Made by a program: the position numbers and the translations under genes. This document shows, piece after piece, positions 6,487-21,271 of a stretch of 21,271 bases of DNA; positions within the stretch are counted from its first letter, which is position 1, and each line of letters starts with the position of its first letter. A model generated the notes under the pieces. The model had not been told where the DNA came from and did not search any database. It saw nothing but the letters and a program-made list of their open reading frames with translations. The stretch is from JBHIER01 sp046760705 [NCBI: bacterium] (GTDB lineage Bacteria; JBHIER01; G020348925), in the NCBI GenBank assembly GCA_046760705.1, contig JBHIER010000006.1, positions 1 through 21,271 on the forward strand, given 5' to 3'.

Positions 6487-6496
6487 GAAGCGGACA

Positions 6497-7312
6497 ATGA
6501 AGACCTTCAGTGAAGAGTTGCGAGAAGCCCGCCAGGCCAAAGGGCTGACCCTGGAGGAACTGGCCCATTCGACGAAGATCAGTTTCAAAGTGCTCAAGGC
6601 GATTGAGACTGGGGATTTCGATGTCCTCCCACAAACGTACATTAAAGGTTTCTTAAGATCATACGCCCAGGAGGTGGGATTGGATGCGGCTGAGGTGGTG
6701 CGCAAGTATGAGATCCACTTAAGAGCAACCGATGCGATCTTTTCTCAACCGAGAGCAATGGTGAAGAAGGCCTCGAAGAGATCATCATGGTATCTTTGGG
6801 GGGCCATTATTGGCGTTTTGATTCTACTGCTTCTAGGACTCCTGGTTCTGAGAAGAGAGGAGCAGGGGCCGAGACAGATCCCGGCCGAGATTGAGGAGGA
6901 TACTGTCTCTTCGCCACCCGTTTCCGCGCAACCGATAGAAGCGGACACACAAGTTGTTGCCAGAAGCGAGGAGGATCGCCCCCAGCAGAATGGAGGGGGT
7001 GGGACAGAAATTGTGGGGCAGGGGCAACACGAAATCACCGAACCCGTGGGCTTGACGCTGAGCGCCGAGGCGGTGAGCGACACGTGGTTGCGGGTGCTGG
7101 CCGATGGTGATGACCTCTATGAGGGGATTATGAAAGCCGGTGTCTCTGCCACATGGAGGGCAGAGAGTCTCTTCGAACTGAAGATTGGCAAGGCCAGAGG
7201 CGTCCGTCTCGTTCTGAATGGACAACCTCTCGGAGAGCTGGGCGACCCTGATAAGGTGGTGAAGAAGTTGGTCCTGGATAGAGATGGGATTGTGACAAAG
7301 GTTCTGAGGTGA
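6497..7312 (+). CDS. rodZ: RodZ-like membrane protein with N-terminal HTH
   Basis: This 271-residue bitopic protein has the RodZ architecture. It has a cytoplasmic HTH_25 (Xre-like) domain at about 5-72, including GLTLEELAHSTKISFKVLKA and the conserved FDVLPQTYIKGFLRSYA stretch. A basic juxtamembrane segment KKASKRSS precedes one transmembrane helix at about 98-118. A Glu/Gln/Ser-rich linker follows, then a beta-rich extracytoplasmic DUF4115 domain at about 185-270. In studied bacteria RodZ links MreB filaments to the cell-wall elongation machinery. No mreB is visible here, so the cell-shape role is inferred from family only. The ATG has a purine-rich AAGAAGCGG upstream. It is the last gene of the dtd-maf-rodZ operon, and a long inverted repeat lies downstream. 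Confidence 0.85.
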   Translation: MKTFSEELREARQAKGLTLEELAHSTKISFKVLKAIETGDFDVLPQTYIKGFLRSYAQEVGLDAAEVVRKYEIHLRATDAIFSQPRAMVKKASKRSSWYLWGAIIGVLILLLLGLLVLRREEQGPRQIPAEIEEDTVSSPPVSAQPIEADTQVVARSEEDRPQQNGGGGTEIVGQGQHEITEPVGLTLSAEAVSDTWLRVLADGDDLYEGIMKAGVSATWRAESLFELKIGKARGVRLVLNGQPLGELGDPDKVVKKLVLDRDGIVTKVLR

Positions 7313-7372
7313 ACAGGAGCAGGCCCATAAGGGTCGGAAGAGAGAACTCACTTCTCTAAAGCCAAATTATGC

Positions 7373-7481
7373 GCCACAGAGTCACAGAGAGACAGAGAAT
7401 TCATATTGACAATAAATCAACTCTGTCTGCTCCTCGCCCCGTTGGCTAAAATATCTATCCTACGGGGCGAGCCTCTGTGGC
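7373..7481. repeat. Nested inverted repeat between rodZ-like gene and priA
   Basis: The outer arms GCCACAGAG (7373-7381) and CTCTGTGGC (7473-7481) are perfect complements. Inside them, CTCGCCCCGT (7433-7442) and ACGGGGCGAG (7462-7471) form a perfect 10-bp stem with a 19-nt loop. No T-tract follows. Pieces of it (GCCCCGTTG and CCTCTGTGGC) recur at 10050-10058 and 10101-10110, so it looks like a dispersed repeat rather than a simple terminator. Confidence 0.6.
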
Positions 7482-7518
7482 TAATGCATATTCTCAGATA
7501 CACTTTCTTCGTCTAAAA

Positions 7519-10014
7519 ATGTCCGTCCGCACAAAGAATGTGGCCCGCCCTCTATGTGTAGATGTGGCCCTTCCCCTGCCAGTGGGAGGTGTGTATACGT
7601 ATGCTGTTCCCAAAGGCTGGGCGGCTCAGGTTCGGGTGGGGAGTCGGGTTCTCGTCCCTGTTCGGGACAGACGTACTACCGGTTTTGTCGTCAAGCTGAA
7701 GCGGGAGGGCAACGGGAACCGGCTGAAGGAGATCGGTGACGTCCTCGATGCAGGGCCTCTTTTTGACTCGGTCCTGTTGCGCCTGACCCAGTGGGTGGCC
7801 GACTATTACCTCTGTCCGTGGGGGGAGGTGTTGAAGGCGGCCCTGCCGGCCGGCATCCATCTGGAGAGCAGACGGAAGATCAGGCTCAAAGAGCCCTATT
7901 CGGATCGGCTGCTGGAGAAGGCCGATCGCCTGGTGGCAGAGGGCTCGCGGATCCTGCGGGCCGTCTTTGAAAAGGGAGAACTCCGGTTCGACAAATTGAA
8001 GCAGCTTGTCGGGGAAGAAGGGGTGAGTGTCGCCGTTGAGGAGCTGGAGAGAAAGGGTTACATTGAGGTACAGAAGAGCGTGGGGCCTCCGCGGGTGAAG
8101 ACGCTTTACGAAAGGTGGATTGTGTTGTCTCAGCCGAGGCCCCTGAGTGAGCACCAGATCCAGCAACTCAAAAAGAGGGCACCCCGTCAGGGATCGTGTC
8201 TCGATCTTCTGCTCAAGGCCGAGGGCCACACGATGTCGGCTTCCGAGCTCCGAAGCAGATACGGCATCGACGGGCCGGTCTTGCAGAGGATGAGGACCGC
8301 CGGTCTGATCCGGTTTGTGGAGAGGGAGATGGTTCGGGACCCGTACAGGGGGGTACCTATTGAAAAGGCCCGGGACTTTGTGCCGACGGCCGAACAATCT
8401 GAGGCGCTCAGGCGCGTTGAGCGCGCCGTGCGCAGCCGCGCCTTTCGGGTCTTTCTGCTTCACGGGGTGACGGGCAGCGGCAAGACGCAGGTCTACATTC
8501 GGGCCATCAGGGAGGTTGTCAAACGTGGCCGAAAGGCCATTGTCCTCATCCCCGAAATCGCCCTGACCCCTCAGACGGTGGCCCGGTTCAGGGGCCACTT
8601 CGCCGATCGCGTAGCCGTACTTCACAGCCGCCTCTCCCTGGGTGAGCGGTACGATATTTGGCGGCGCATTCAGGGGGGAGCCTTCGACATCGTCATCGGC
8701 GCCAGGTCGGCAGTTTATGCCCCGGTGAGACGGCTGGGCCTCATTGTCGTAGATGAAGAACACGAGAGCGCGTATAAACAGTCGGACTCTGTTCCCAGAT
8801 ACCACGCTCGCGATGTGGCCATTGTGCGAGCCCGGCTCTCAAAGGCCGTCATCCTTCTGGGAACGGCCACACCCAGCTTGGAATCCTACCATAACGCCAC
8901 CACGGGAAAGTATGCCAGGTGCGCCCTCCCCTATCGGATCGACCATCGCCCTCTTCCCCCTGTCACCGTGGTGGATATGTGCGAGGAGCGCAAGGCCGGC
9001 AATTGGGACATCTTCTCCAACCTCCTCAGGGAGAAAATCGAGCAGAGGTGGGCCAAAGGAGAACAGGTCATTCTACTCCAAAACCGGCGTGGATTCTCCA
9101 GCTACATCCAGTGCGAGCAGTGCGGTTATGTGGCCAAATGTCGGAGTTGCAACGTCACTCTGACCTATCACTCCGCAGAGCACGCGCTGCGATGCCACTA
9201 CTGTGACGCTCGCCACCCGGCTCCGAGCCTCTGCCCCAAGTGCAGCGGCCACCGATTGCGATACAGAGGTGTGGGAACTCAGAGAATTGAGAAGGAGGTT
9301 CAAAAGCTCTTTCCGGGCATCAAAATCCTTCGCATGGACGTTGATACGACCCGCAGAAAGGGGGCGCACGGCCGTATTCTCAAGCTTTTTGAGCGGGGAG
9401 AGGTCGATGTGCTCCTGGGCACACAGATGGTTGCCAAAGGGCTCGATTTTCCCAGGGTCACTCTGGTAGGAGTCATCGATGCCGACGTGGGCCTCAATCT
9501 GCCCGACTTCCGGGCCAGCGAGCGGACCTTTCACCTCCTGACCCAAGTGGCAGGACGAGCCGGGAGAAGCGAGTTGGGTGGGGAGGTGGTCGTTCAAACC
9601 TTCTCTCCGGACAATCCGGCCGTCGCTTTTGCCAGATGCCACGATTATGCCTCCTTCTCCAAAAGAGAGCTCGAACAGCGACGGGAGCTTCGATATCCAC
9701 CCTTCAGCCGCCTCGTCTCCATTCTCACCCAGGGCCGGGAGGAGGAAGAGGTGAGGAACAGGGCGGAGGAACTGGCTCATGGAATTCGCGCCTCTCTGGA
9801 AAAGGGAGCAGATTCTTTCGTCCGCGTGTTGGGACCGGCCCCAGCCCCTTTGACCAAAATCATGGGAAACTACCGCTGGCAAATCATTCTGAAGGGTGAC
9901 GACCCACGCCTTTTTAAAGAGTGCCTCAGAGCCGGGCTCAGTTCTCTGAGCTCTGACCAGAGCTCGAAAAGAGTGAGAGTGACCGTGGATGTCGACCCCG
10001 TCGATATGCTGTGA
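7519..10014 (+). CDS. priA: Primosomal protein N' (replication restart helicase PriA)
   Basis: The 831-residue cytoplasmic 3'-5' helicase recognises stalled forks and reloads the replisome. The N-terminal 3'-end-binding domain begins ARPLCVDVALPLPVGGVYTY. A winged-helix-like segment follows at about 135-290. The helicase core starts with Walker A GVTGSGKT (Lys322), then the Walker B-type VVDEEH, LLGTATPSLES, and motif VI QVAGRAGR. Between the two helicase lobes lies the PriA zinc region with eight cysteines in CEQCGYVAKC, CNVTL, RCHYCD and LCPKCSG. All key elements are intact. The ATG at 7519 is preferred to the GTG at 7477, which lies inside the inverted repeat; a GTG at 7540 is also possible and no site has a clear Shine-Dalgarno. 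It appears monocistronic. Confidence 0.96.
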   Translation: MSVRTKNVARPLCVDVALPLPVGGVYTYAVPKGWAAQVRVGSRVLVPVRDRRTTGFVVKLKREGNGNRLKEIGDVLDAGPLFDSVLLRLTQWVADYYLCPWGEVLKAALPAGIHLESRRKIRLKEPYSDRLLEKADRLVAEGSRILRAVFEKGELRFDKLKQLVGEEGVSVAVEELERKGYIEVQKSVGPPRVKTLYERWIVLSQPRPLSEHQIQQLKKRAPRQGSCLDLLLKAEGHTMSASELRSRYGIDGPVLQRMRTAGLIRFVEREMVRDPYRGVPIEKARDFVPTAEQSEALRRVERAVRSRAFRVFLLHGVTGSGKTQVYIRAIREVVKRGRKAIVLIPEIALTPQTVARFRGHFADRVAVLHSRLSLGERYDIWRRIQGGAFDIVIGARSAVYAPVRRLGLIVVDEEHESAYKQSDSVPRYHARDVAIVRARLSKAVILLGTATPSLESYHNATTGKYARCALPYRIDHRPLPPVTVVDMCEERKAGNWDIFSNLLREKIEQRWAKGEQVILLQNRRGFSSYIQCEQCGYVAKCRSCNVTLTYHSAEHALRCHYCDARHPAPSLCPKCSGHRLRYRGVGTQRIEKEVQKLFPGIKILRMDVDTTRRKGAHGRILKLFERGEVDVLLGTQMVAKGLDFPRVTLVGVIDADVGLNLPDFRASERTFHLLTQVAGRAGRSELGGEVVVQTFSPDNPAVAFARCHDYASFSKRELEQRRELRYPPFSRLVSILTQGREEEEVRNRAEELAHGIRASLEKGADSFVRVLGPAPAPLTKIMGNYRWQIILKGDDPRLFKECLRAGLSSLSSDQSSKRVRVTVDVDPVDML

Positions 10015-10074
10015 AAGGAGTGTACACTCTGTTCCATTCATCAGCCATTGCCCCGTTGCGAAGCTTTACAGGGT

Positions 10075-10101
10075 GCCTGCCTGTGCCGAAGGCAGACAGG
10101 C
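10075..10101 (+). repeat. Hairpin downstream of priA
   Basis: GCCTGCCTG (10075-10083) pairs with CAGACAGGC (10093-10101) with one mismatch; an alternative fold uses TGCC/GGCA around a GAA loop. No T-run follows, so it is more likely a repeat or mRNA 3' end structure than an intrinsic terminator. Confidence 0.45.
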
Positions 10102-10156
10102 CTCTGTGGCGTAAAACCCGGTTGAGAGACGATTTTGCCCGTTCGGAAAAAAAGAC

Positions 10157-10183
10157 TTGACAAAACCTTAAAGTTTTTATAAA
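10157..10183 (+). promoter_or_regulatory. Putative promoter for rho
   Basis: A perfect TTGACA (10157-10162) is followed 15 nt later by TATAAA (10178-10183), or 17 nt later by TAAATT (10180-10185), in a markedly A/T-rich tract. It lies about 300 nt upstream of the rho start. Confidence 0.5.
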
Positions 10184-10386
10184 TTGAAAACTGTTGGATT
10201 CCAGAGGTGAGATGTGCGGTACAGTTTTTCCCTTTTCCGATTGATCCTCAACAAGGGTAGATTTGTCCTGAACGATCTTTGAAGCCCCGAAAGCGATCTA
10301 ATCTCCTTGGAAGATCTCCATGAACTCCTGAGGGTTTTCGAAAGGCGTGATAGTAAAACCGATCTGTGTCCTCCTGAGAAGCTATC

Positions 10387-10431
10387 GAATGCTTGCATTG
10401 AGAATGCTTGCATTGAGAATGCTTGCATTGG
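10387..10431. repeat. Three tandem 15-bp repeats in the rho leader
   Basis: The unit GAATGCTTGCATTGA occurs three times without gaps (10387-10401, 10402-10416, 10417-10431), the last ending in G instead of A. Each unit contains the self-complementary AATGC-TT-GCATT. The array ends 57 nt before the rho start, so it could be a protein-binding array or an RNA structure. Confidence 0.85.
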
Positions 10432-10488
10432 GGTAGAGGATATAGCTTGTTAACAATTTCAACAACAGAGTAAGGAGATGAACTTGCC

Positions 10489-11739
10489 ATGGATCTGATC
10501 GATCTCAAAAAGAAGACCATTCCAGAGTTACAGAAGATGGCGCAGAAGTTGGGGCTCCAGGGGTGTGCTGGTCTGCGAAAGCAGGAGTTGATCTTTAAAA
10601 TCCTGGGGGCGCAGACCGAAAAGAACGGGCTCATCTTTGGCGAGGGGACCTTGGAGATTCTTGAGGAGGGGTATGGTTTTCTGCGTTCTCCGGACTATAA
10701 CTACTTACCCGGCCCGGATGACATTTATGTGTCCCCCTCCCAGATTAAGCGCTTCGGTCTGAAGACCGGAGATACGATCTCCGGACAGGTGAGGCCACCC
10801 AAGGAGAGCGAGAAATATTTTGCTCTACTGAAGGTGGAGGCAGTCAATTTCGAGAATCCTGAAGCGGCCAAAAGCAAAGTACTCTTCGACGATTTGGTTC
10901 CCCTCTATCCTGAGATGAAAATTAAGCTGGAAACCTCCTCCGAGGATCCGTCGATGCGAGTTATGGATCTGTTGACTCCCATGGGAAAAGGGCAGAGGGG
11001 ACTCATTGTGTCACCGCCCAAGGCAGGCAAGACGATGTTACTCCAGAAGATCGCCAACAGCATCACAGATAACCACCCCGAGATCATCCTCATCGTTCTG
11101 TTGATCGACGAGCGGCCTGAGGAGGTGACCGATATGGAGCGCTCTGTGAAGGGTGAGGTGATCAGTTCCACCTTCGACGAACCCCCTGAACGCCATGTTC
11201 AGGTGGCCAATATGGTTTTAGAGAAGTCGAAGCGGCTGGTGGAGTACAGAAAGGATGTGGTCATTTTGCTGGACAGCATCACCCGCTTGGCTCGAGCCCA
11301 CAATGCGGTCGTTCCCCACAGCGGAAAGATTCTCTCCGGTGGTGTGGATTCCCAGGCCCTGCAGAAACCGAAGCGTTTCTTCGGGGCGGCCAGGAATATT
11401 GAGGAGGGCGGGAGCTTAACCATCATTGCTACTGCTCTTGTCGAAACAGGGAGCAGGATGGATGAGGTGATCTTCGAGGAGTTCAAAGGGACCGGCAACA
11501 TGGAACTCGTTCTGGATCGGAGACTGTCAGATCGTAGGGTTTTCCCGGCCATCGATGTGAACCGATCTGGGACGCGAAAAGAGGAACTGCTCATCTCTGA
11601 GAAGGAGCTGAGTCGCATCTGGCTTCTGCGAAAACTGCTCAGTGAGATGAACGTGGTCGAAGCTATGGAGTTCTTGCTGGAGAAGATCAACGAGACGAAG
11701 AGCAACAAGAAGTTCTTCCAGTCGATGGTCGAGATTTAA
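10489..11739 (+). CDS. rho: Transcription termination factor Rho
   Basis: The 416-residue hexameric RNA helicase ends transcription at Rho-dependent sites. Residues 1-45 are the Rho N-terminal SAP-like fold ([18 protein letters not shown]). Residues about 48-120 form the RNA-binding cold-shock domain, with [18 protein letters not shown] and [16 protein letters not shown]. The RecA-like ATPase has Walker A SPPKAGKT (Lys181), [13 protein letters not shown], the FDEPPERH segment and [12 protein letters not shown]. The C-terminal half is canonical ([20 protein letters not shown]). There is no large N-terminal insertion, unlike Rho of several other phyla. AAGGAG lies 11 nt before the ATG, a slightly long spacing. 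It heads the cluster rho-rpmE-DUF1385-prfA-prmC and has a long repeat-bearing leader. Confidence 0.98.
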
Positions 11740-11799
11740 CGTGCCAATTTGTGGCCTCAAGCGCAGTGCTGAAGACCGTATTGAGAGGAGGATACGCTG

Positions 11800-12057
11800 T
11801 TGAAGAAGGGAATTCATCCAGAATACAGACCGACGACCATTACCTGCGCCTGCGGTTCTGTTATCGAAACCCGCTCCACGGCCAAGGAGATTCGGGTGGA
11901 GATCTGCTCCAATTGCCATCCTTTTTTTACCGGCAAACAGAAATTGGTCGATACAGCCGGCCGGGTGGAGCGGTTCCGCAGGAAGTATAAGATGACCGAT
12001 GCTGGGCAAAAGGGCGGTGGGCCCTCACCAGCAGAGGGGCAAGAGAGAGAAGCGTAG
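11800..12057 (+). CDS. rpmE: 50S ribosomal protein L31 (zinc form)
   Basis: The 85-residue L31 binds the large subunit near the central protuberance and helps bridge the subunits. Zinc ligands Cys16, Cys18, Cys36 and Cys39 are present (CAC and CSNC), so this is the Zn-containing type, not the zinc-starvation paralogue. The core [10 protein letters not shown] ... [21 protein letters not shown] is canonical. The C-terminal tail after about residue 62 ([20 protein letters not shown]) is longer than in E. coli L31 and low in complexity. The start is TTG at 11800, supported by AGGAGG 8 nt upstream. It follows rho by 60 nt and is followed by an intrinsic terminator. Confidence 0.96.
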
Positions 12058-12070
12058 CATCCTTTTTCAG

Positions 12071-12127
12071 AGAGTGGCGGAGAACAGTTTCTGAAAAACT
12101 GTCAGCACGGTGAGCCACTCTTTTTTT
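12071..12127 (+). terminator. Intrinsic terminator after rpmE, with nested inner hairpin
   Basis: AGAGTGGC (12071-12078) pairs perfectly with GCCACTCT (12114-12121), and seven T residues follow at 12121-12127. A second perfect stem, ACAGTTT (12084-12090) / AAACTGT (12096-12102), sits inside the loop. The structure lies in the 87-nt gap between rpmE and the DUF1385 gene and should partly or fully separate rho-rpmE from the downstream genes. Confidence 0.75.
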
Positions 12128-12144
12128 GTCTGTAGCCAGAGGAG

Positions 12145-13041
12145 ATGGCGAAGGAATCTCATATCGGTGGACAGGCTGTGATTGAGGGGGTGATGATGCG
12201 AGCCCCTGAGAAGATTGCCATTGCCGTTCGAAAGCCGAACGGACAGATTGGCCTCAAAGAGGAGCCCTTTTTCTCCCTTTCAAAGAGAGTAAAACTCTTC
12301 GGTCTACCCCTTATCCGGGGTGTCGTCGCTCTCGTCGAAACGATCGCAATCGGAGTGAAGGCCATCACCTATTCCGCTGATGCGGCCCTCCAGGATGAGG
12401 ATGGCAACGGGCAGGGGCAGAGGACGTTTTCCACTCCCTGGCTGGTGGGGACAGTAATGGTGGCTCTGGGGTTCGGGTTTTTGATCTTCTTCTATCTTCC
12501 CCTCTTCATTGCTGGACTGTTCAAATTTGAGAGCGGTTTTCTGTTCAATATGATCGACGGCCTGATTCGGCTGATCGTCCTGCTCCTTTACGTCTGGTTG
12601 ATCAGTATGTGGAAGGAGATCCGCAGGATCTTCGAATACCACGGGGCTGAACACAAAACGATTTTTGCCTACGAGGCCGGAGGGACCTTAACAGTAGAGA
12701 ATGCGCGCAACTATACGACCCATCACCCCCGATGCGGCACCAGCTTTCTCCTCATTGTGGTGGGGGTGAGTATCGTCGTCTTCCTCTTTTTGGGCAGACC
12801 GGAGACCGTCGGTGAGCGGTTGCTTCGCTTCCTCTTCGTTCCAGTCATAGGGGGTGTCTCCTACGAGTTGATCAAGCTATCGGGAAAGAAGCAGCGGAGC
12901 AGAGTGGCTCGCATCTTCATGGCTCCTGGTTTATGGCTGCAGAGGATAACGACCAAAGAGCCCAGTGATGACCAGTTGGAGGTGGCGCTGGTAGCTTTAA
13001 AAAGTGCTCTTCGTCAGGGGCGAGAGGGAGAGAATGTTTGA
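12145..13041 (+). CDS. DUF1385 family membrane protein
   Basis: This 298-residue integral membrane protein belongs to DUF1385 (the B. subtilis YqhQ family). Its biochemical role is not established, although it is often described as a predicted metal-dependent enzyme. Family blocks visible are [15 protein letters not shown] at about 7-21, the amphipathic [20 protein letters not shown] segment, and the conserved [16 protein letters not shown], whose His/Glu residues could bind metal. [14 protein letters not shown] follows. Hydrophobic helices lie around 97-125, 133-153, 199-216 and 230-246. It sits between rpmE and prfA as in many bacteria. The AGAGGAG ribosome-binding sequence directly abuts the ATG, and an in-frame TAG four codons upstream rules out an earlier start. 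Its 3' end overlaps prfA by 8 nt. Confidence 0.88.
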
Positions 13042-14101
13042 AAGGTTGAACGGATTAGAGGCCCGGTACAGGGAGATTGACGAGCTGCTCAGCGATCCGA
13101 AAGTTTTGGCCGATCAGGAGAGGGTAAAGCAGTTGGCCAGGGAGCGAGCCGATCTCTCCCCGCCGGTCTCAACCTACCGAGAATATAGGAGGGTGGCCCA
13201 GTCCATCAGGGAGGCCGAGCAGATCTTGGCCAGCTCTTCCGATAGTGAACTCTCCGATCTGGCCAAGCAGGAGTTGAACGATCTGGGGGCGAAGCGGCTG
13301 GCCCTGGAGGAGAAGTTGAAGGAGCTGCTTCTTCCGAAGGATGAGCACGATACGAGGAATACGATTGTGGAGATCCGGGCCGGAACGGGGGGGGAGGAGG
13401 CGGCCGTCTTCGCCGCCGATCTGTACCGCATGTATTCGCGGTATGCGGAACGGAAGGGATGGCGCATCGAAGAGATGAGTTCCAATCCGACTGGCCTGGG
13501 CGGTTTCAGGGAGATTGTTTTTCTGGTGAAGGGTGAGCACGTGTACAGTCGGCTGAAGTTTGAGAGCGGTGTCCACCGGGTGCAACGGGTGCCGATTACC
13601 GAGTCCAGCGGTCGGATTCACACCTCGGCGGCTTCGGTAGCTGTTCTGCCGGAGGCCGCGGAGCTGGATGTGGAGATCGATGAGGGTGACCTGCGTATCG
13701 ACGTCTTCCGCTCTTCGGGCCCGGGGGGACAGAGTGTGAACACGGCCGACTCGGCCGTTCGCATCACCCACCTGCCCACAGGCCTCGTCGTTCAGTGCCA
13801 GGAGGAACGATCCCAGCTCCAAAACCGGGCCAAGGCCCTCAAGGTCCTGCGAGCCAGACTGCTGGACAGAGCCCGGCAGGAGCAGGAGACCAAAATTGCC
13901 GCTGAACGGAAATCGCAAGTGGGGACAGGGGACAGGAGCGCCAAGATCCGGACGTATAATTTCCCCCAAAACCGGGTGACCGATCACCGCATCGGCCTGA
14001 CCATCCACAGACTGGGTGAGATCCTCGACGGGGATCTGAGTGAGCTCATCGACGCTCTGGTTATGGCCGACCGAGCGGAACGGTTGAAGAAGGCCAGTTG
14101 A
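13034..14101 (+). CDS. prfA: Peptide chain release factor 1
   Basis: The 355-residue class I release factor reads UAG/UAA and triggers peptide hydrolysis. The coiled N-terminal domain 1 (about 1-105) precedes the codon-recognition loop with PIT at 187-189. This is the PxT type diagnostic of RF1; RF2 has SPF. The catalytic GGQ is at 231-233 within [20 protein letters not shown]. The C-terminus with [20 protein letters not shown] is normal. The ATG at 13034, preceded by GAGAGGGAGAG, is chosen over an upstream in-frame codon at 13004 because it gives the family N-terminus [12 protein letters not shown]. It overlaps the DUF1385 stop by 8 nt, indicating translational coupling. prmC, whose product methylates the GGQ glutamine, follows 25 nt later. 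Confidence 0.97.
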
Positions 14102-14126
14102 TGGCCAGCCTCCAGCCCAGAAGGAG

Positions 14127-15062
14127 ATGGAAGAGAAAGAGGTAACGGTGCAGGAGGCTCTCCATCGGGTCTCCCACTGTCTGGCCCAAAAAGGGTTTGA
14201 GAACCCCCGCCTCAACGGAGAACTGCTCCTCAGTTGGGCCCTTTGCTGCCGGCGAATTGACCTATACCTCAAGGGAGACCGGCTGCTGAGTCGCCAGGAG
14301 GCTGCCACCCTCCAGGAGGCTTTGGAGAGACGGCTCTCTCACACCCCTATCCAGTACATTGTGGGTTCCACCCAGTTTCTCTCCTGCGATCTGATCGTCA
14401 ACGAAGATGTATTCATCCCCCGACCTGAGACGGAGATTTTGGTCGAGGCGGTCGTGAAGAGGCTTCAGGTCGGCTGGTCAGGCGACACCGGTCCGGTCGT
14501 GGTCGATCTGGGCACCGGTTGCGGCAACATTGCCATCTCATTGGCCCAGGCCTTTCCCAGAGCCCGGGTGTACGCCACCGATATCTCAGAGCGAGCCCTA
14601 TCGGTGGCCCGAGAGAACGGTCGACTGAACGACCTGGCGGCCCACATCTCCTTTCACCTGGGGAATCTCTTTGAACCGTTGGGGGATTTTGGCCTCAGGG
14701 AGGGCGCGGATGCCATCGTCTCCAATCCCCCCTACATCGTCACCTCCGAGATCGCAGATCTTCCCCCAGAGGTTCGAGATTTTGAACCGCAGGTGGCCCT
14801 GGACGGAGGTGAAGATGGTTTGGATGTTTTGCTCAGAGTTGTTCGCGAGGCACCCGTTTTTCTCAGGAGAGATGGACTTCTCGCCCTCGAAGTTGGCCAA
14901 GGCCAGGCGGATGTGGTCCGGTGCATGATGGCCGGTGAAGGCCGGTATGAGGGGATCGAGGTTATCAGGGATCTGAACGGTATACAACGGGTGGTGATGG
15001 GGACGAAGATGGACGGAGGAACCTTCCGACATAGCCCATTGTCGGGTGGCTCCGCACTCTGA
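14127..15062 (+). CDS. prmC: Release factor glutamine methyltransferase
   Basis: The 311-residue SAM-dependent enzyme N5-methylates the glutamine of the GGQ motif of RF1/RF2, raising termination efficiency. It has a helical N-terminal substrate-binding domain (about 1-85) with PIQYIVGSTQFLSCDLIVN and the RPETE loop. The Rossmann domain has the SAM motif DLGTGCGNIAIS, the acidic strand end YATDIS, and the catalytic NPPY at 200-203 that binds the glutamine amide. The C-terminus is slightly extended beyond QRVVMGTK by about 16 residues of no recognised motif. GAAGGAG directly abuts the ATG, an unusually short spacing that also occurs at the DUF1385 gene. Adjacency to prfA matches its function. 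Confidence 0.96.
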   Translation: MEEKEVTVQEALHRVSHCLAQKGFENPRLNGELLLSWALCCRRIDLYLKGDRLLSRQEAATLQEALERRLSHTPIQYIVGSTQFLSCDLIVNEDVFIPRPETEILVEAVVKRLQVGWSGDTGPVVVDLGTGCGNIAISLAQAFPRARVYATDISERALSVARENGRLNDLAAHISFHLGNLFEPLGDFGLREGADAIVSNPPYIVTSEIADLPPEVRDFEPQVALDGGEDGLDVLLRVVREAPVFLRRDGLLALEVGQGQADVVRCMMAGEGRYEGIEVIRDLNGIQRVVMGTKMDGGTFRHSPLSGGSAL

Positions 15063-15105
15063 CCTCCAAAGCGCCTCTTCCCAGTCCGCTCCATGGAAAT
15101 TCCGA

Positions 15106-18100
15106 ATGAGATTGCGCTCCCTAACATATAGGTTCCTTGTCGGCTTGTGTATCCTCTCATTGTTTGCCCACTCCTCTGCCCGGGAGTTCGAAAATCCTGA
15201 TGGAGGGCTCGAGGGAAAAATTCCTTTCGATGATATCGATCTGGCGGCTGGGATTGTGGACGTCGGCGAGTTGAAGCAGACCGTTTTCAACAACGGTCTT
15301 TTGGGGACGTGGGGCTGGTCCGGGTACATCGTCCCTGAGCTTCCGGCCGGATGGTACAAGGGGCACGGTTACGTTCCTGATCTCAATCTCTGGATCGGTG
15401 CCCCGGAGGGGCCCTGGACGCCCACATATTGGGACCCGGCGGCCGGCGACTCGGTGAGCATGGGTCCGACCGTCTCCGAGGCCGAACTCTATGGGGGGAC
15501 GGACAGATCCGATTGGGGGCCCCTTCCAGGCTCCCTGGGTACCCTTTATTCCGGGGAGGCCACCGTGGGGGACGTAGCGCCGGCCTCCTTCTTGGCCCAA
15601 CTTCCTCTGATGGCTACCAGCACCCTGCCCACATCGTGGCCGCTGGACGAACTTGGACAACGAACATGGCCCGGTCCGTGGGGCATTGATCCCCAGACCG
15701 GCCAGGTCTCCAAAGGGCGGTTTGTCTCCGACGAAGACGTCTTCTTCAGCATCACCGACGGTCCGTATGCGGACCGGGACGAGCTCCCCGATCAGGGGTA
15801 CCCTCTCAATATCCAACTGGACGTTTCGGTTCACGGTTTCGATCACCCGTACGAGGACTTCATCTTCTACACGGCCGAGATCATCAACATCAGCCCCTAC
15901 GACTACACAGGTCTCTATGTCGGGGTCTTTTTCGATGCCGATATCCCCGAGTACAACAGCCGAGAGATCGTCAACGACCGCTTCGATTGGGTGGGGTTGA
16001 ACCGGGAGCTGGATCTGGCCTACATCTACGACTATCGCTGGTTTTCTGAGGACTGGCCTGAAGGCGATCCGGCCGCCTACCGGGTCTTCGCTGGAATCCA
16101 GTTCTTGGAGACCCCTCAGGATCTGGGTCTGACAGACTGGCACTGGTTCCGCTGGGAGGAGAGGCCCGGGGTGGTCATCCCGGAGAGGCAGGAGCGGATC
16201 CAGTATGCGGTGCTGAGCGGGGACACGACCGACCTCGAGCCCGAGGAGCGGGACGCCTATTTCCATCCCGACGCGGCCGGCCACCTCGACCCCCACTTCG
16301 ATTCGTGGGAGACGGTGGTGAGCGACTACCCCTTCGGTTTCGATTGCACCTTCCTCGCATCCAGCGGCCCCTTCGATCTGGCCTCAGGGGATACGACCAC
16401 CCTTCGCTGGGCCCTGGTCATGGGCGACGACGAGGAGGATCTGCTGGCCAACGGTAGGTTGGCCAGAGAGTTGTCCGAGCATCAACTGGTGCGGCTCCAT
16501 CCGAAGGTGGGGGAGATCGGCGTGGCCGTTGGCCTAGCCTCCCTGGATACCTGTGAGGTCACGGTGACGGTGAAGAGCTTCGACCACGACGGCATCTCAG
16601 AGGTGAGAGGATACTTTGAGACCTCCGAAGGGACGGTGGTCGATTCGCTTCGGTTGTTCGATGATGGGCTCCACGGTGACGGTGCCCCCGGCGATTCGGT
16701 CTTCTCCAACCGCTGGCTGCTGACGTCCAATCTGGAGCACTATTTTCTGGACGTGCTCTCGACCGATCTCCTCTCCTACGCCACGCGCATCGACCGGGCA
16801 GCGGCCTTCTGGGCCGGACTGGGTGTCCTTCCCCCTTTCGATTTGGCGGCAGAAGGCCAGGAGGAGAAGATCTACCTGCGGTGGTCACCCAATCCGGATC
16901 CGGCTACTGCCGGGTACAATCTGTACTACGACTCCGACGGTCCTGGTCCGCCTTACAACGGAACCGATGCCAATCAGGGGCCCTCGCCCATCGTGGTCGA
17001 TTCGAGAGCCGATTCGAACTCTGTCCTCTCCGGGCTGAGGGATGGGGTGCGATATTTTATCAACATTACCGCCTACGATACGGCCGGCCGCCAGAGCGGT
17101 TTCCCGGCGGAGGTGAGCGCCGTTCCCGGCCTCTCTTATCCCCCCATTGTCTCTGTTCGAGGGCTCTCCCGTGATCAGGGGGCAGAACTGGAATGGGGGA
17201 GGTATGCCACTGCTGCTCCGGCCGACCTGAAGAGATTTCACGTCTACCGATCGAGCGATCTGGGGGTCAGCTACGATAGGATCGCTTCCACCGTCCAGAT
17301 GCATTATCTGGACACCGGATTGAGCAACGGTCTCCCCTACATATATTACGTCACTGCCGAGGACAGCGCCGGTAACGAGCGACTGCCCAGGTTCCCATTG
17401 GAAATCACCCCGGTGGCTGAGGCCGCTGGATTCCCAATTGAGGTGGGTGGGGCGACAGACTACTTCGGGGCGACCGTGGCCGACGTAGATGGGGACGGTG
17501 CCAACGAGATCATCGTCTCGACCCGTGGTCCGGATGGTTACAGTCTCCACCTCCTGGAACTGAACGGATCTGAGCTCCCCGGCTGGCCCGTACGGTTCGA
17601 TTTCCCTTTGCAGGCGCGGCTGACCACGCGGGCGGTGGGCGACTTAGACGGCGACGGTAAGCTTGAGATCGTCGCCGGTTCGGCCAATTACGACCTGGAT
17701 GTTGCTTCCGGTGTCTCTGTCTACGCTTGGCACAGCGATGGGAGTCCGGTGACAGGTTGGCCGCAGCAGATACCAGAGGCCTATTTCAGCGCAGTGGCCC
17801 TGGGCGACCTGAACGGGGACGGCGATCTGGAGATCGTAGCCGGATCCTCAAATCCCGATCTGAGCTCAGGGGCAGTCTATCTGTGGCACCACGACGGGGC
17901 TGTGGCAGCGGGATGGCCCAAGACGAACCGCAGATTTGGGTTCACCCATCCGACTATGGGCGATCTGAACGGGGACGGTGGCCCGGATATCCTCTTCGCC
18001 TCCGATTCACTCTACGCCTGGGACTACGCCGGAGAGGCTCTGCCCGGCTGGCCCCAGCCCTGCGGTTACAGCTATAATTCACCCAACCTCGGAGACATAG

Positions 18101-19308
18101 ATAGGGACGGCGAGCCGGAGATTCTGGTGGCTACCCTCTTCAGCCTGGCCTATGCCTGGGGCCGTGACGGGACTCCTGTTCCCGGTTGGCCGGTGGCTTT
18201 GAACGGAGCGTTGACCTACTATTCGGCCCTCGGAGACCTCGACGGCGACGATGGACTTGAGTTTGTGGTCCCACCCTTTCTGGGCAGCGGCCTCTTCGTT
18301 TTGGATGGTGACGGCAGCCTGGTCCGGTCCATAAGGGTTCCCAATGCTCACTGGTACGCCTTCCCCAGAATTGGTGACGTGGACGGCCAGCCGGGAGTTG
18401 AGATATTGGCCGAGGTTCGGAACATCCAAAATGATGCTTTCTACTATTTTGCTTGGCGACTCGACGGCTCGGTCCTGTTTGGTTGGCCCGTATCGACCTA
18501 CGGCTCAAACTACGATGTGACTGTATGCGACGTCGATGGCGATGGAGCGCTGGATCTGGTCACGGCCCAGGGTCCGTATGTGATGGCCTACTGCCACGGA
18601 TACCCGTACGATCCGGATCGGGTGGAATGGGCCACCACCCACCACGATCTCCATCTGACAAATGCATACGGATTTGAGGCTGCCCCGATGGGGGTCATGC
18701 TTCAAAACTTCTCTGTTTTAGGGAGAGCTGAGGGGGTGCTCCTCCGATGGTCCGTCTCGGGCAGTGGAGAAGTGACCGCTTTTTCGATCCTGAGAGCCTC
18801 CAGAGCCGACGGCCCGTTCGGTGAGGTACAAGGAGAGGTCGAAGAGAAGAACGGCGCTTACTGTTTCCTTGACAAGAATGTTTCTATTGGTTCTCCCTAT
18901 CTCTACAAACTTGAAGTTGTCAGTGCTGCCGGAGAGCGGAGGAGCTTCGGTCCACTGGCGGTCGACTGGTCTGTTCCCTCCCAATTCGCCCTCTTCCAGA
19001 ACTATCCCAACCCCTTTAACCCCACCACAACCATCCAGTACACCATCCCCAGCAGAGAGCACAGAGGAAAGAGCGGAGGGAAGGGAGTGGACTCTGAGCT
19101 CTCCGCTCTTCGCTCTACGCTTAAAATCTACAACATTCTGGGGCAGGAAGTGAGGACGCTATTGGATGAGCATCAGAAGCCGGGCTATTATACCGTTACC
19201 TGGGATGGCCGGGATGAGAACGGCCGCGAGGTCGCCAGTGGGGTGTACTTCTATCGGTTGACAGCGGGAGAGTATACCTATACAAAACGCATGGTGCTTT
19301 TACGATAG
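15106..19308 (+). CDS. Giant secreted FG-GAP/fibronectin-like protein with T9SS-type C-terminal domain
   Basis: The 1400-residue extracellular or surface protein has unknown function. A signal peptide (MRLRSLTYRFLVGLCILSLF, then AHSSA) starts at the ATG at 15106; the in-frame GTG at 15046 overlaps prmC and would bury it. Residues about 28-458 form an unassigned beta-rich module seen in this class of candidate-phylum secreted proteins. Two fibronectin-III-like domains follow (about 575-675 and 680-770). About eight FG-GAP/VCBS repeats (about 780-1165) carry calcium-type motifs such as DVDGDGANEI, DLDGDGKLEI and DLNGDGDLEI, probably folding as a beta-propeller. A third fibronectin-like domain (about 1195-1285) precedes a sorting domain with FALFQNYPNPFNP, LKIYNILGQEVRTL, TWDGRDENG and GVYFYRLTAGEYT. 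A palindromic in-frame insertion sits in its linker. No secretion-system gene is in the window. Confidence 0.85.
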   Translation: MRLRSLTYRFLVGLCILSLFAHSSAREFENPDGGLEGKIPFDDIDLAAGIVDVGELKQTVFNNGLLGTWGWSGYIVPELPAGWYKGHGYVPDLNLWIGAPEGPWTPTYWDPAAGDSVSMGPTVSEAELYGGTDRSDWGPLPGSLGTLYSGEATVGDVAPASFLAQLPLMATSTLPTSWPLDELGQRTWPGPWGIDPQTGQVSKGRFVSDEDVFFSITDGPYADRDELPDQGYPLNIQLDVSVHGFDHPYEDFIFYTAEIINISPYDYTGLYVGVFFDADIPEYNSREIVNDRFDWVGLNRELDLAYIYDYRWFSEDWPEGDPAAYRVFAGIQFLETPQDLGLTDWHWFRWEERPGVVIPERQERIQYAVLSGDTTDLEPEERDAYFHPDAAGHLDPHFDSWETVVSDYPFGFDCTFLASSGPFDLASGDTTTLRWALVMGDDEEDLLANGRLARELSEHQLVRLHPKVGEIGVAVGLASLDTCEVTVTVKSFDHDGISEVRGYFETSEGTVVDSLRLFDDGLHGDGAPGDSVFSNRWLLTSNLEHYFLDVLSTDLLSYATRIDRAAAFWAGLGVLPPFDLAAEGQEEKIYLRWSPNPDPATAGYNLYYDSDGPGPPYNGTDANQGPSPIVVDSRADSNSVLSGLRDGVRYFINITAYDTAGRQSGFPAEVSAVPGLSYPPIVSVRGLSRDQGAELEWGRYATAAPADLKRFHVYRSSDLGVSYDRIASTVQMHYLDTGLSNGLPYIYYVTAEDSAGNERLPRFPLEITPVAEAAGFPIEVGGATDYFGATVADVDGDGANEIIVSTRGPDGYSLHLLELNGSELPGWPVRFDFPLQARLTTRAVGDLDGDGKLEIVAGSANYDLDVASGVSVYAWHSDGSPVTGWPQQIPEAYFSAVALGDLNGDGDLEIVAGSSNPDLSSGAVYLWHHDGAVAAGWPKTNRRFGFTHPTMGDLNGDGGPDILFASDSLYAWDYAGEALPGWPQPCGYSYNSPNLGDIDRDGEPEILVATLFSLAYAWGRDGTPVPGWPVALNGALTYYSALGDLDGDDGLEFVVPPFLGSGLFVLDGDGSLVRSIRVPNAHWYAFPRIGDVDGQPGVEILAEVRNIQNDAFYYFAWRLDGSVLFGWPVSTYGSNYDVTVCDVDGDGALDLVTAQGPYVMAYCHGYPYDPDRVEWATTHHDLHLTNAYGFEAAPMGVMLQNFSVLGRAEGVLLRWSVSGSGEVTAFSILRASRADGPFGEVQGEVEEKNGAYCFLDKNVSIGSPYLYKLEVVSAAGERRSFGPLAVDWSVPSQFALFQNYPNPFNPTTTIQYTIPSREHRGKSGGKGVDSELSALRSTLKIYNILGQEVRTLLDEHQKPGYYTVTWDGRDENGREVASGVYFYRLTAGEYTYTKRMVLLR
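19063..19116. repeat. Inverted repeat inserted in the sorting-domain linker
   Basis: AAGAGCGGAG (19069-19078) and CTCCGCTCTT (19101-19110) are perfect complements. Extended 16-nt arms (19063-19078 and 19101-19116) match at 14 of 16 positions around a 22-nt loop. It encodes the Ser/Arg/Gly/Lys-rich stretch REHRGKSGGKGVDSELSALR between two conserved strands of the domain. Confidence 0.7.
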
Positions 19309-19390: not shown

Positions 19391-19419
19391 TTGACAAAGG
19401 AGGCAAAAAGTGTTATTAT
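19391..19419 (+). promoter_or_regulatory. Strong sigma70-type promoter for HEAT/methyltransferase genes
   Basis: A perfect TTGACA (19391-19396), a 17-nt spacer and TATTAT (19414-19419) lie about 70 nt before the HEAT-protein start. This suggests that the A/T-rich two-gene block is transcribed independently of the upstream gene. Confidence 0.75.
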
Positions 19420-19439
19420 TGATTTCGCATATGAACGAG

Positions 19440-19465
19440 TTGCGTGATATTACGCCTCCACGCAA
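19440..19465. promoter_or_regulatory. Inverted repeat between promoter and HEAT gene, possible operator
   Basis: TTGCGTG (19440-19446) and CACGCAA (19459-19465) are perfect 7-bp complementary arms with a 12-nt spacer. They lie just downstream of the predicted transcription start. It could be a repressor site or a 5' UTR hairpin; no dedicated controller gene is visible. Confidence 0.4.
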
Positions 19466-19487
19466 TTTAGATGAGTGAGTAGATATA

Positions 19488-20954
19488 ATGGCAAACAGAA
19501 GGTCATTTAAGTCTGATATAAGCTTTCTGGAAAAGATTTCCATGGGTGCGACTGGCACCATTGCTGTGTTTAACAATTTGAGAGCTCAGGGACATAATCC
19601 TGTTGAGCTTGAACGTGGTTCAAGAAGCTTTGAAATTTGGAAGGACATCAAGATCAAACGTATCAGAGTGCCTGACATCCTTTGCATAAATTGTAGTAAA
19701 TGTGTTGAATGCAGGACAAAGGCCAAGTTAGAAATCTCCATGTCTCATTCCCAAACAGACCCAGAACGGGGATGGGATTATGGTTTGGATGATAATGATT
19801 TTGTAGCATTTGTGACCTGTAGTCGGATAGGCGATGAGCCTATAGATTGGCAAGTGAGCAGTCCTACTCAATACGTTTCCGTTAAAGACCTCCGGTTAGC
19901 CCAAAAAGGCGATAGTGCCATTTTAACGTTACCAAAAGGGGCAGAAGAAGGTTTTGAAATGAGGATAATTTGGCCCATAGCGACTGCAAGTACCTCCGGT
20001 ATTGTTACGTCGGTTACCCGAGAAAGAATCCAGTATCGAAGGGAGATTGATAACAGAATTATAACTTTGAGGCTTTTGAAAAAGGGAAAGGTTCTGACAC
20101 CTTTGGTTAGGGAAGGTGAAGGGATTGTCGAGAATCAGATCACTGCGTCTATAGTTCCTGTAAGTTTAAACTTTCTGTGCGATAAGTCAGCTTCTGAAGA
20201 CCACTATATTGAATTACACTCGAGTACGTCACTAAGCAAGAGAGATACAGCAACCAAAGCACTCGCTTTCTTTGTTTCTCCCCCAATTACTAACTCTCTC
20301 ATTGATAAGCTCAGCGACTCCAGTGAACATATCTACGTAAGGCTTGAAGCTGCCGCAAGTCTTGCACGTCAAGATGATATTCGTGGATGCGATTTTATTA
20401 AACAGTGTTTAAACGATGAATATTTGCAAAACAGGTTAGAATCCATTATTGTGTTAGTGGAGATTGATAAAGACCCTTCCTGCCAAATCTTAATCGATAC
20501 TCTTTTGGATACAGAGCAACATCCAGAAATACGTGCTGGAGCTGCTTGGGCTCTTGATGAGCTACGCAACAGGTCAGCTTTGAATGCTCTTATTGAAAGT
20601 TTTGTTGCTGTCGAAGAAAACATTCGCATCGAAGCTACCAGAGCTTTAGGTAAACCTGCTCAGCGATTTACTTCTGATATCATCCATGAATTCCCACGAG
20701 CGCATCCTTCTATGAGACCAGGTATTTCATGGGCATTGAGCACAGCAGGAAGGTTTGCCATTCGTGATATGATAGATCTCTTAGTCGACGATGATGCTCG
20801 CCAGTGGGTTGCTTACATTATCGGTACTCAGGACCAACAAAGATACATTTACGAAATAGAGCAACTCAAAATGAGAGATCACGAAGTCTATTTCGCCGCA
20901 ACAGTCTTGTGGAAAATAATGACCAGTTGGGTTTGGGGATTGGAGGAATACTGA
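19488..20954 (+). CDS. HEAT-repeat protein with possible N-terminal PD-(D/E)XK nuclease core
   Basis: The function of this 488-residue protein is unproven. The N-terminal third has a helix (GATGTIAVFNNLRAQGH), an acidic pair Glu40/Glu42, then VPDILCINCSKCVECRTKAK with Asp63, Glu74 and Arg76/Lys78. This spacing resembles a PD-(D/E)XK nuclease active site. Four cysteines (66, 69, 72, 75) spaced CxxCxxCxxC are embedded in it. Residues about 90-250 are an unassigned beta-rich region. Residues about 255-470 form HEAT-like helical repeats (YVRLEAAASLARQDD, EIRAGAAWALDELRNRSALN, NIRIEATRALGKP), which usually act as protein- or nucleic-acid-binding solenoids. The ATG lacks a good ribosome-binding site. 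It overlaps the methyltransferase start by 1 nt (TGATG), so the two are coupled. Base composition is clearly more A/T-rich than the preceding gene, suggesting acquisition. Nuclease assignment is inference. Confidence 0.65.
   Translation: MANRRSFKSDISFLEKISMGATGTIAVFNNLRAQGHNPVELERGSRSFEIWKDIKIKRIRVPDILCINCSKCVECRTKAKLEISMSHSQTDPERGWDYGLDDNDFVAFVTCSRIGDEPIDWQVSSPTQYVSVKDLRLAQKGDSAILTLPKGAEEGFEMRIIWPIATASTSGIVTSVTRERIQYRREIDNRIITLRLLKKGKVLTPLVREGEGIVENQITASIVPVSLNFLCDKSASEDHYIELHSSTSLSKRDTATKALAFFVSPPITNSLIDKLSDSSEHIYVRLEAAASLARQDDIRGCDFIKQCLNDEYLQNRLESIIVLVEIDKDPSCQILIDTLLDTEQHPEIRAGAAWALDELRNRSALNALIESFVAVEENIRIEATRALGKPAQRFTSDIIHEFPRAHPSMRPGISWALSTAGRFAIRDMIDLLVDDDARQWVAYIIGTQDQQRYIYEIEQLKMRDHEVYFAATVLWKIMTSWVWGLEEY
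20087..20104. repeat. REP-like palindrome inside the HEAT gene
   Basis: AAAGGT-TCTGAC-ACCTTT is an 18-nt hairpin with perfect 6-bp arms. It matches the intergenic palindrome at 1936-1954 apart from one missing C in the loop. It is read in frame as KVLTPL. Confidence 0.5.
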
Positions 20955-21271
20955 TGAGATCGCTACCTAAGCCTTTATATAAGACACATTTCGGTAAAGC
21001 TTATTTAGGTGATGCACTGGATCTACTTCAATGTCTGCCAGATGAGTCAATAGACCTCGTCGTGACTTCGCCGCCTTTTGCATTACAACGCCAAAAAGAA
21101 TACGGTAATGTGGATCAGGACGATTATGTAAATTGGCTTTTATCGTTTAGCATTGAGGTAAAACGGGTGTTAAAGGAAACTGGCAGCTTCGTGCTTGATC
21201 TTGGGGGGGCTTATCGTAGAGGTAGGCCTGTACGCTCACTCTACAATTATAGAATCCTTATAAGACTTTGC
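20954..21271 (+). CDS. Site-specific DNA methyltransferase, beta class (m4C-type), partial
   Basis: The first 106 codons are in the window and the gene runs off the right edge. The product opens with YLGDALDLLQCLPDESIDLV leading into the catalytic motif TSPPF at about 38-42, then ALQRQKEYGN, VLKETGSFVLDLGGAY and RSLYNYRILIR. A catalytic motif close to the N-terminus, with the SAM-binding FxGxG motif expected later, is the beta-class order. TSPPF rather than DPPY favours N4-cytosine methylation, as in M.PvuII-like enzymes. That is an inference from a partial sequence. The SAM motif and target-recognition domain are not seen. GGAGG lies 7 nt before the ATG, and TGATG couples it to the HEAT gene. 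It is probably half of a restriction-modification or related defence module. Confidence 0.88.
   Translation, partial: MRSLPKPLYKTHFGKAYLGDALDLLQCLPDESIDLVVTSPPFALQRQKEYGNVDQDDYVNWLLSFSIEVKRVLKETGSFVLDLGGAYRRGRPVRSLYNYRILIRLC

What the first reader, a model, noticed from the sequence alone, without database searches (positions are those of the whole stretch)
19391..21271. Coupled HEAT-repeat putative nuclease and beta-class DNA methyltransferase: candidate unusual restriction-modification module
Directly seen: a near-consensus promoter, an A/T-rich two-gene block with 1-nt stop/start overlap, an m4C-type methyltransferase motif (TSPPF), and an upstream protein with HEAT repeats. Family knowledge: genes tightly coupled to solitary beta-class methyltransferases are often the cognate restriction enzyme. 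Inference: residues 20-80 of the HEAT protein (Glu40/42, Asp63, Glu74, Arg76/Lys78) form a PD-(D/E)XK-like core. The HEAT solenoid would then replace a conventional target-recognition or dimerisation domain. No standard endonuclease is recognisable, so this may be an under-described architecture.
Basis: partly seen in the sequence, partly recalled or inferred. Interest (0 to 1): 0.72.

Follow-up and report, generated by a model that had tools for sequence, protein, structure and literature searches.

The report
HEAT-protein partner of a PvuII-type methyltransferase
A bacterial gene pair couples a DNA-marking enzyme of the well-known PvuII type to an undescribed three-part protein that sits where the DNA-cutting enzyme normally sits, so it is probably an unrecognised kind of restriction enzyme.

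Summary
In detail: a near-consensus promoter (19391-19419), a 488-codon HEAT-repeat gene (19488-20954) and, overlapping its stop by 1 nt, a methyltransferase (20954 to the window end). The methyltransferase is of the M.PvuII family (predicted N4-C, CAGCTG). I found 18 further homologues of the HEAT protein, in archaea, Chloroflexota, Desulfobacterota and viral contigs. An M.PvuII-like gene follows in 18 of 19 (window included). Elsewhere M.PvuII-like genes sit beside R.PvuII, an HNH nuclease or an Mrr-type nuclease; the HEAT protein occupies that slot, and PF09225 (R.PvuII) was found in 0 of 14 HEAT genomes searched. CAGCTG is strongly depleted in six of seven HEAT genomes sampled, though partly in relatives too. 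Against: two loci carry both HEAT protein and R.PvuII, one has a different methyltransferase, and the PD-(D/E)XK fold could not be confirmed. A middle domain resembles the RNA-polymerase beta sandwich-barrel. Best reading: a type II restriction-modification system with an undescribed restriction-enzyme family (0.65).

The parts
19391..19419 (+). sigma-70-type promoter-like site TTGACA-17-TATTAT with TG before the -10
   Evidence: 11 of 12 matches; consensus match only
19488..20954 (+). HEAT-repeat protein, 488 aa: candidate restriction endonuclease
19488..19967 (+). N-terminal domain, residues 1-160: unassigned, candidate nuclease; its first 112 residues are the most conserved part (mean pairwise identity 0.60, 28 of 112 invariant in 18 full-length members)
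19605..19721 (+). residues E40-K78, holding the invariant set E40, E42, R43, D63, E74, R76, K78 (candidate active site)
   Evidence: invariant in 19 of 19
19974..20165 (+). residues 163-226: beta domain matching a region of the RNA polymerase beta subunit (sandwich-barrel; that name is recalled)
   Evidence: Z 9-10, rmsd 1.5-2.1 over 60-65 residues
20181..20927 (+). residues 232-480: HEAT solenoid
20954..21271 (+). M.PvuII-like beta-class DNA methyltransferase, first 106 codons, cut by the window end; 1-nt overlap with the HEAT gene
   Evidence: (relative L001 matches M.PvuII 1boo, E=1.4e-139)
21065..21079 (+). TSPPF motif (m4C-type catalytic motif; the meaning is recalled)
   Evidence: invariant in the 15 MTases of A9

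Best explanation
The pair is a horizontally acquired type II restriction-modification system. The second gene encodes an M.PvuII-type methyltransferase that puts N4-methylcytosine on CAGCTG. The first gene encodes a three-domain protein that fills the place of R.PvuII: an N-terminal metal-dependent nuclease domain (candidate residues E40/E42, D63, E74, R76, K78), a sandwich-barrel domain like one of RNA polymerase beta, and a HEAT solenoid. It would cut unmethylated CAGCTG in incoming DNA while the methyltransferase protects the host. Shown: gene coupling, residue conservation, M.PvuII family membership, occupation of the nuclease slot, depletion of CAGCTG in most HEAT genomes sampled. Inferred: endonuclease activity, the target of cutting, the role of each domain, horizontal acquisition (from base composition and scattered occurrence).
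For: MTase of relative L001 matches M.PvuII over residues 6-301, E=1.4e-139; window MTase 89% identical to it over 106 aa. HEAT-MTase adjacency 18 of 19. Invariant E40, E42, R43, P62, D63, E74, R76, K78 in 19 of 19; residues 1-112 are the most conserved part. HEAT and MTase distances correlate, r 0.79, over 105 pairs of 15 loci (shared ancestry not removed). At 26 of 29 M.PvuII-like places read, from 498 genomes, neighbours are HEAT protein 7 (one a C-terminal remnant), R.PvuII 5, Mrr-type 5, HNH 3, none of these four 6, and no place had two of the four (chance of no overlap 0.0002 if independent). PF09225 found in 0 of 14 HEAT genomes and in 3 of 3 positive controls. CAGCTG observed/expected: G1096 3/92.2, G968 1/82.5, G559 2/24.7, G970 2/17.4, G933 0/12.7, G575 1/7.7, window 0/2.7.
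Against: L007 and L008 carry HEAT protein, M.PvuII-like MTase and R.PvuII together, so there the HEAT protein is not a substitute; their MTase groups with R.PvuII-linked ones. L060 pairs the HEAT protein with a different MTase in divergent orientation. No nuclease fold was confirmed. CAGCTG is not depleted in G584 (13/15.0); it is partly depleted in HEAT-free relatives of G968 (15/64.5 pooled) and in other controls (55/82.7, summed); and the 14-kb stretch around the HEAT genes of G968 itself holds 7 sites, so avoidance there may predate this copy. HEAT genomes against all non-HEAT samples P=0.02, against the G968 family alone P=0.05. Other hexamers are equally depleted in some of these genomes.
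Confidence: 0.65

Rival explanations
1. The HEAT protein is not a nuclease but an accessory of the M.PvuII-type methyltransferase (DNA-binding scaffold, regulator or specificity aid); cutting, if any, is done by an unlinked enzyme, or the methyltransferase acts alone.
For: HEAT solenoid and sandwich-barrel-like domains are scaffold-like; it coexists with R.PvuII in L007 and L008; no nuclease family match.
Against: The invariant acidic and basic residues cluster in the N-terminal domain in the manner of an active site; R.PvuII, HNH or Mrr-type nucleases take its place elsewhere; CAGCTG is depleted in most HEAT genomes sampled while R.PvuII was not found in them.
Confidence: 0.17
2. The HEAT protein is a nuclease that reads something other than bare CAGCTG (another sequence, a modified base or a DNA structure), and the methyltransferase is only its habitual neighbour or one of several protectors.
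For: L060 pairs it with a different MTase; L007 and L008 have R.PvuII already.
Against: 18 of 19 members keep an M.PvuII-like MTase next door; HEAT and MTase distances correlate; CAGCTG is depleted.
Confidence: 0.1
3. The HEAT protein is the effector of an ATPase-driven, Lamassu-like defence module and the methyltransferase gives self-protection.
For: An SMC-like ATPase related to LmuB (E=3.2e-30) lies directly upstream in L002 and L004.
Against: By tblastn that ATPase is encoded only at L002 and L004 among the 20 HEAT loci searched; several of these loci are cut short by contig ends.
Confidence: 0.06

Closest known systems
PvuII restriction-modification system (M.PvuII, R.PvuII, C.PvuII; Proteus vulgaris pPvu1)
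   Same: The methyltransferase is the same family, matching along residues 6-301 of M.PvuII; the predicted site CAGCTG is depleted in most HEAT genomes sampled.
   Different: No R.PvuII at the window or in the other HEAT loci except L007 and L008, none in 14 HEAT genomes; no ORF of 60 aa or more on the + strand between the upstream gene and the HEAT gene that could be a small HTH regulator; the partner is the HEAT protein, co-oriented and overlapping, whereas in pPvu1 R and the HTH gene lie divergently from M.
Mrr_cat-type nuclease beside an M.PvuII-like MTase (e.g. L082, L130, L139)
   Same: A large single protein next to the same kind of methyltransferase, in the nuclease position.
   Different: Recognisable Mrr_cat domain (E=2.9e-9); no similarity found to the HEAT protein's N-terminal domain.
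HNH_2 plus MTaX1 nuclease beside an M.PvuII-like MTase (e.g. L081, L126, L138)
   Same: Same slot next to the MTase.
   Different: HNH catalytic domain with MTaX1 (L081); no HEAT repeats reported for it.
Bacterial RNA polymerase beta subunit, sandwich-barrel region (region name recalled)
   Same: Fold match of residues 163-226 (Z 9-10, rmsd 1.5-2.1 over 60-65 residues, 19-27% identity).
   Different: Only this one domain; Foldseek E-values are 0.002 or worse, so common descent is not shown.
HEAT/alpha-Rep solenoids (YibA, CpcE/F, designed alphaReps)
   Same: C-terminal half.
   Different: A generic scaffold; says nothing of enzymatic function.

Membership tests
PvuII-type type II restriction-modification system | M.PvuII-family N4-cytosine methyltransferase | tested here: met
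   L001 MTase against 1boo E=1.4e-139; window fragment 89% identical to L001; activity not tested
PvuII-type type II restriction-modification system | R.PvuII (PF09225) as cognate nuclease | tested here: not met
   absent by tblastn from the window and every HEAT locus searched except L007 and L008 and from 14 of 14 HEAT genomes by profile (positive control 3 of 3). The window's own contig ends at 21271 and several genomes are draft assemblies
PvuII-type type II restriction-modification system | restriction pressure on CAGCTG in host DNA | tested here: inconclusive
   strong depletion in 6 of 7 HEAT genomes sampled, but partial depletion also in HEAT-free relatives and one exception
PvuII-type type II restriction-modification system | site-specific cleavage of unmethylated DNA | not testable with these tools
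   needs enzyme assay
PD-(D/E)XK nuclease superfamily | conserved D ... (D/E)-X-K residues | tested here: inconclusive
   D63, E74 and K78 invariant in 19 of 19, but the position two after E74 is Arg, not Lys (E-x-R-x-K)
PD-(D/E)XK nuclease superfamily | alpha-beta-beta-beta-alpha-beta core fold | tested here: inconclusive
   model order H11-33, E38-40, E64-66, E71-78, E82-87, E105-113 at modest confidence; the rows of the PDB fold searches cover mainly the beta domain
PD-(D/E)XK nuclease superfamily | sequence-profile relation to a known member family | tested here: inconclusive
   no Pfam family matched the window's N-terminal domain and only scattered weak ones other members; weak phrog_7517 (unknown function) in 8 of 19, best E 0.024; no PDB match; no relation to the Mrr-type or R.PvuII neighbours by hhalign; absence of a hit does not exclude it
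HEAT-repeat proteins | HEAT repeats forming a solenoid | tested here: met
   HEAT_2 E=4.7e-13; model 237-479 all helical; Z 14.1 to an alphaRep, rmsd 9.9 over 246 residues
Lamassu defence systems | LmuB-like SMC ATPase next to the effector | tested here: not met
   present only in L002 and L004 among the HEAT loci searched; not in the window

The most novel reading that the evidence does not exclude
A restriction-endonuclease family of unprecedented build: an N-terminal nuclease domain of unassigned fold, an RNA-polymerase-beta-like sandwich barrel and a HEAT solenoid, which has replaced R.PvuII as partner of M.PvuII-type methyltransferases in archaea and bacteria and cuts CAGCTG.
Probability: 0.45. 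Interest if true: 0.75.

Novelty: new variant of a known kind. Interest (0 to 1): 0.6.

Why it matters
If true, it adds a restriction-enzyme family that current libraries miss (no Pfam, NCBIfam or PADLOC match fell in the N-terminal domain of the window protein) and shows that one methyltransferase family has been served by at least four different kinds of nuclease. A HEAT solenoid and an RNA-polymerase-like barrel in a restriction enzyme would be an unfamiliar way to handle DNA. The prediction is sharp: the target is probably CAGCTG, so a single digest with commercial PvuII as standard decides it.

Tried and rejected
Relatives on plasmids or phages: tblastn of the window protein and of L007's protein against 72,556 plasmid and 50,697 phage records found none. 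Viral contigs: the single-sequence scan found none; alignment and pattern scans gave L007, L008, L054 and L060; of the 7 stretches three encode members by tblastn.

Zinc-ribbon or iron-sulfur idea from C66, C69, C72, C75: only C66 is invariant; C69 is Thr in L054 and L060, and C72 and C75 vary, so a four-cysteine site is not a family feature.

Third gene in common: the 116-aa ORF after the MTase of L054 looked GIY-YIG-like by eye but has no Pfam or PHROG hit and no convincing counterpart at the other loci (only hits of 12-22 aa with E 1.4 or worse). The LmuB-like ATPase is confined to two loci.

Best viral Foldseek hit (A0A2I6UH17, E 8.6e-4, TMq 0.42, rmsd 5.6), an unannotated Salinibacter phage protein, which I took to be the 168-aa gene of that record by its length, has no family hit and no profile relation, so I do not use it. 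I saw no PD-(D/E)XK nuclease among the rows shown; the beta domain fills those lists.

Literature, search listings only, no paper opened: PvuII with HEAT repeat and restriction-modification gave 0 papers; HEAT repeats with restriction endonuclease, nuclease domain and DNA methyltransferase gave 1, on casposons; PvuII accessory-protein terms gave 80, of which 15 were listed, general R-M papers by title; some searches listed 5, 0, 5 and 0 papers, none on such a protein by title or abstract start. REBASE was not available.

Whether the HEAT-free relatives of G968 carry an M.PvuII-like system was not tested separately, so some may themselves be under PvuII-type restriction.

Full report
Observation. 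The window's last 1.9 kb hold a promoter-like site at 19391-19419 (11 of 12 consensus bases), a 488-codon gene at 19488-20954 with HEAT repeats (HEAT_2 E=4.7e-13), and an overlapping methyltransferase gene from 20954 that the window cuts after 106 codons. GC drops from about 0.60 to 0.42 at this block, which fits horizontal acquisition. No whole genome is held for the window.

Which methyltransferase. The full-length MTase of the relative L001 matches M.PvuII (PDB 1boo) over residues 6-301, E=1.4e-139; the window fragment is 89% identical to it over 106 residues. The stretch NPSKLPSPIEWVNKRKIRVKDAVNT of L001 is identical in M.PvuII, so I infer the same target, CAGCTG, methylated at N4 of a cytosine; that M.PvuII makes m4C in CAGCTG is established knowledge (recalled). 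The window itself does not reach that stretch.

The HEAT family. A genome scan with residues 20-130 gave four close relatives (L001, L002, L004 from Methanophagales archaea; L003, lacking its first codons, from a Dehalococcoidia genome; 73-78% identity) and two partial ones from one Desulfobacteraceae genome (L005, L006). Profile searches then gave, at full length and seeds included, 2 of 197 genomes close to G003 (matches in the other 58 genomes listed start at model position 210 or later, in the HEAT part), 3 of 395 Desulfobacterota plus the partial G005, 3 of 294 genomes of the phylum of G001 plus two partial and 7 of 400 Chloroflexota (one frame-broken). Viral contigs gave L007, L008, L054 and L060. 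I count 19 members with a readable N-terminal domain, window included.

Coupling. An M.PvuII-like MTase gene follows directly in 18 of 19. It is cut by the end of the sequence in the window and L047; in L074 the HEAT gene is frame-broken while the MTase match runs through. In L007 and L008 about 220-250 nt separate the genes; elsewhere they overlap or lie within about 20 nt. The exception, L060, has a different N6_N4 MTase gene, divergently oriented.

Conservation. Of residues 1-112, 28 are invariant in 18 full-length members (mean pairwise identity 0.60); of residues 232-480, 7 of 249 (0.38); of residues 163-226, none of 64 (0.33). The invariant set includes E40, E42, R43, K55, K57, R58, R60, P62, D63, C66, E74, R76, K78 (19 of 19). 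D63 follows P62 at the edge of a predicted strand and E74, R76, K78 would lie on one face of the next (the facing is inferred), which is how a PD-(D/E)XK site looks, but with Arg at the position usually held by Lys.

Fold. AlphaFold gave a mostly confident HEAT solenoid, a fair beta domain and a modest N-terminal part (mean pLDDT 66.6 for the whole, 71.5 for residues 1-226; 7 and 9 sequences). Residues 163-226 match a region of the RNA polymerase beta subunit (Z 9-10, rmsd 1.5-2.1 over 60-65 residues, 19-27% identity; Foldseek E 0.002 at best). Nothing convincing matched the N-terminal part: no PDB chain by profile up to E 10, scattered weak Pfam hits in at most 3 of 19 members, weak hits to a PHROG of unknown function in 8 of 19 (phrog_7517, best E 0.024), one weak viral model. 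The nuclease fold is therefore inferred.

What stands in this place elsewhere. M.PvuII-like MTases (E up to 1e-60) occur in 21 of 251 Chloroflexota and 7 of 247 Desulfobacterota genomes, 29 places. I read 26 of 29 (not G953, G391 and the second place of G350). Neighbours: HEAT protein 6 intact and 1 C-terminal remnant (L125), R.PvuII 5, Mrr_cat-type nuclease 5, HNH_2/MTaX1 nuclease 3, none of these four 6; no place had two of the four. Flanks differ in length and several end at contig ends. Independent placement would give no overlap with probability 0.0002 (places are not phylogenetically independent). On plasmids, 33 records have such a MTase; of 10 read, R.PvuII is beside it in 8 and the HNH nuclease in 2, one of which (L082) also has the Mrr type, so the exclusion is not absolute; the HEAT protein is in none. 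PF09225 was found in 0 of 14 HEAT genomes, in 0 of the tool's 14 named genomes, and in 3 of 3 positive controls. The HEAT protein thus sits in the nuclease slot.

The awkward cases. L007 and L008 carry HEAT protein, MTase and a convergent R.PvuII (L007's matches PDB 1eyu, E=2.9e-47; L008's is 86% identical to it). Their MTase groups with R.PvuII-linked MTases (support 0.90 with L127), so there R.PvuII may be the MTase's own partner and the HEAT gene a second, separately placed unit. R.PvuII-linked L123 and L124 nest among HEAT-linked MTases (support 0.83-0.85), so partners have probably been exchanged more than once.

Site avoidance. Against a maximal-order Markov expectation, CAGCTG counts were G1096 3/92.2 and G968 1/82.5 (400 kb each), G559 2/24.7, G970 2/17.4, G933 0/12.7, G575 1/7.7, G584 13/15.0, window 1-19300 0/2.7. 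The archaeal loci are too short to tell (0/1.3, 1/2.8, 0/1.1). Nine non-HEAT genomes, many samples short, sum to 55/82.7. Nine HEAT-free members of the G968 family pool to 15/64.5 (one, G1114, gave no readable bases; their own M.PvuII status was not tested). HEAT genomes against all non-HEAT samples: P=0.02; against the G968 family alone: P=0.05. The 14-kb stretch around the HEAT genes of G968 holds 7 sites, one inside the HEAT gene, although the sampled rest has 1 in 400 kb, so that avoidance is probably older than this copy; the other operons listed hold none. Several other palindromes are as depleted in these genomes. I read this as support for CAGCTG as a restricted site in these lineages, not as proof that the HEAT protein cuts it.

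Mechanism. Most likely the HEAT protein is the restriction enzyme: nuclease at the N-terminus, DNA reading or assembly through the barrel and solenoid, self-protection by m4C. Closest known system: PvuII. It works like a PvuII-type R-M system; it belongs to that kind by its methyltransferase only, since R.PvuII was not found. I rate it a new variant of a known kind.

Noticed in passing
L002:5343-7778 and L004:374-2812: SMC-like ATPase related to Lamassu LmuB (E=3.2e-30) directly upstream of the HEAT gene in two Methanophagales genomes; 82% identical between them.
   Followed up: partly
window residues 163-226 of the HEAT protein (19974-20165): Beta domain with the fold of a region of the RNA polymerase beta subunit inside a presumed restriction protein.
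   Followed up: partly
L052:5517-5809, L005:2-145, L006:7944-8063, L051:3599-3724: Partial copies: in L052 HEAT residues 4-33 lie next to MTase residues 246-336 (looks like an internal deletion); L005 loses homology after HEAT residue 54; L006 and L051 stop at contig ends.
   Followed up: partly
L006:1653, 3793, 7531 and L005 about 145-155: The word GTTATACGC occurs 3 times in L006 (0.03 expected) and again where the HEAT homology of L005 breaks off; perhaps a recombination site of a gene-cassette array.
   Followed up: no
L123, L124, L126, L128, L130, L132, L134, L138-L140: M.PvuII-like methyltransferases are paired with R.PvuII carrying an extra N-terminal part that looks HTH-like (L123, L124), HNH_2/MTaX1 nucleases or Mrr_cat nucleases; one MTase family, several nuclease kinds.
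   Followed up: partly
L060:4306-6093 and 6451-7923: A HEAT-family member divergently placed from a 595-aa N6_N4 MTase of another type; its site specificity should differ.
   Followed up: no
L076 (G968): The stretch around the HEAT genes holds 7 CAGCTG sites in 14 kb while 400 kb sampled from the same genome hold 1; the host seems to have avoided the site before these genes arrived.
   Followed up: partly
L054:425-775: 116-aa ORF after the MTase that looks GIY-YIG-like by eye (GVYVIWYG..VRIGQG), without a Pfam or PHROG hit.
   Followed up: partly
window 15046-19308: 1420-aa protein upstream with a C-terminal YPNPFNPTTTIQYTIP segment, a sorting-tail-like motif (recalled) of FCB-type bacteria; a hint at the window's host.
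   Followed up: no
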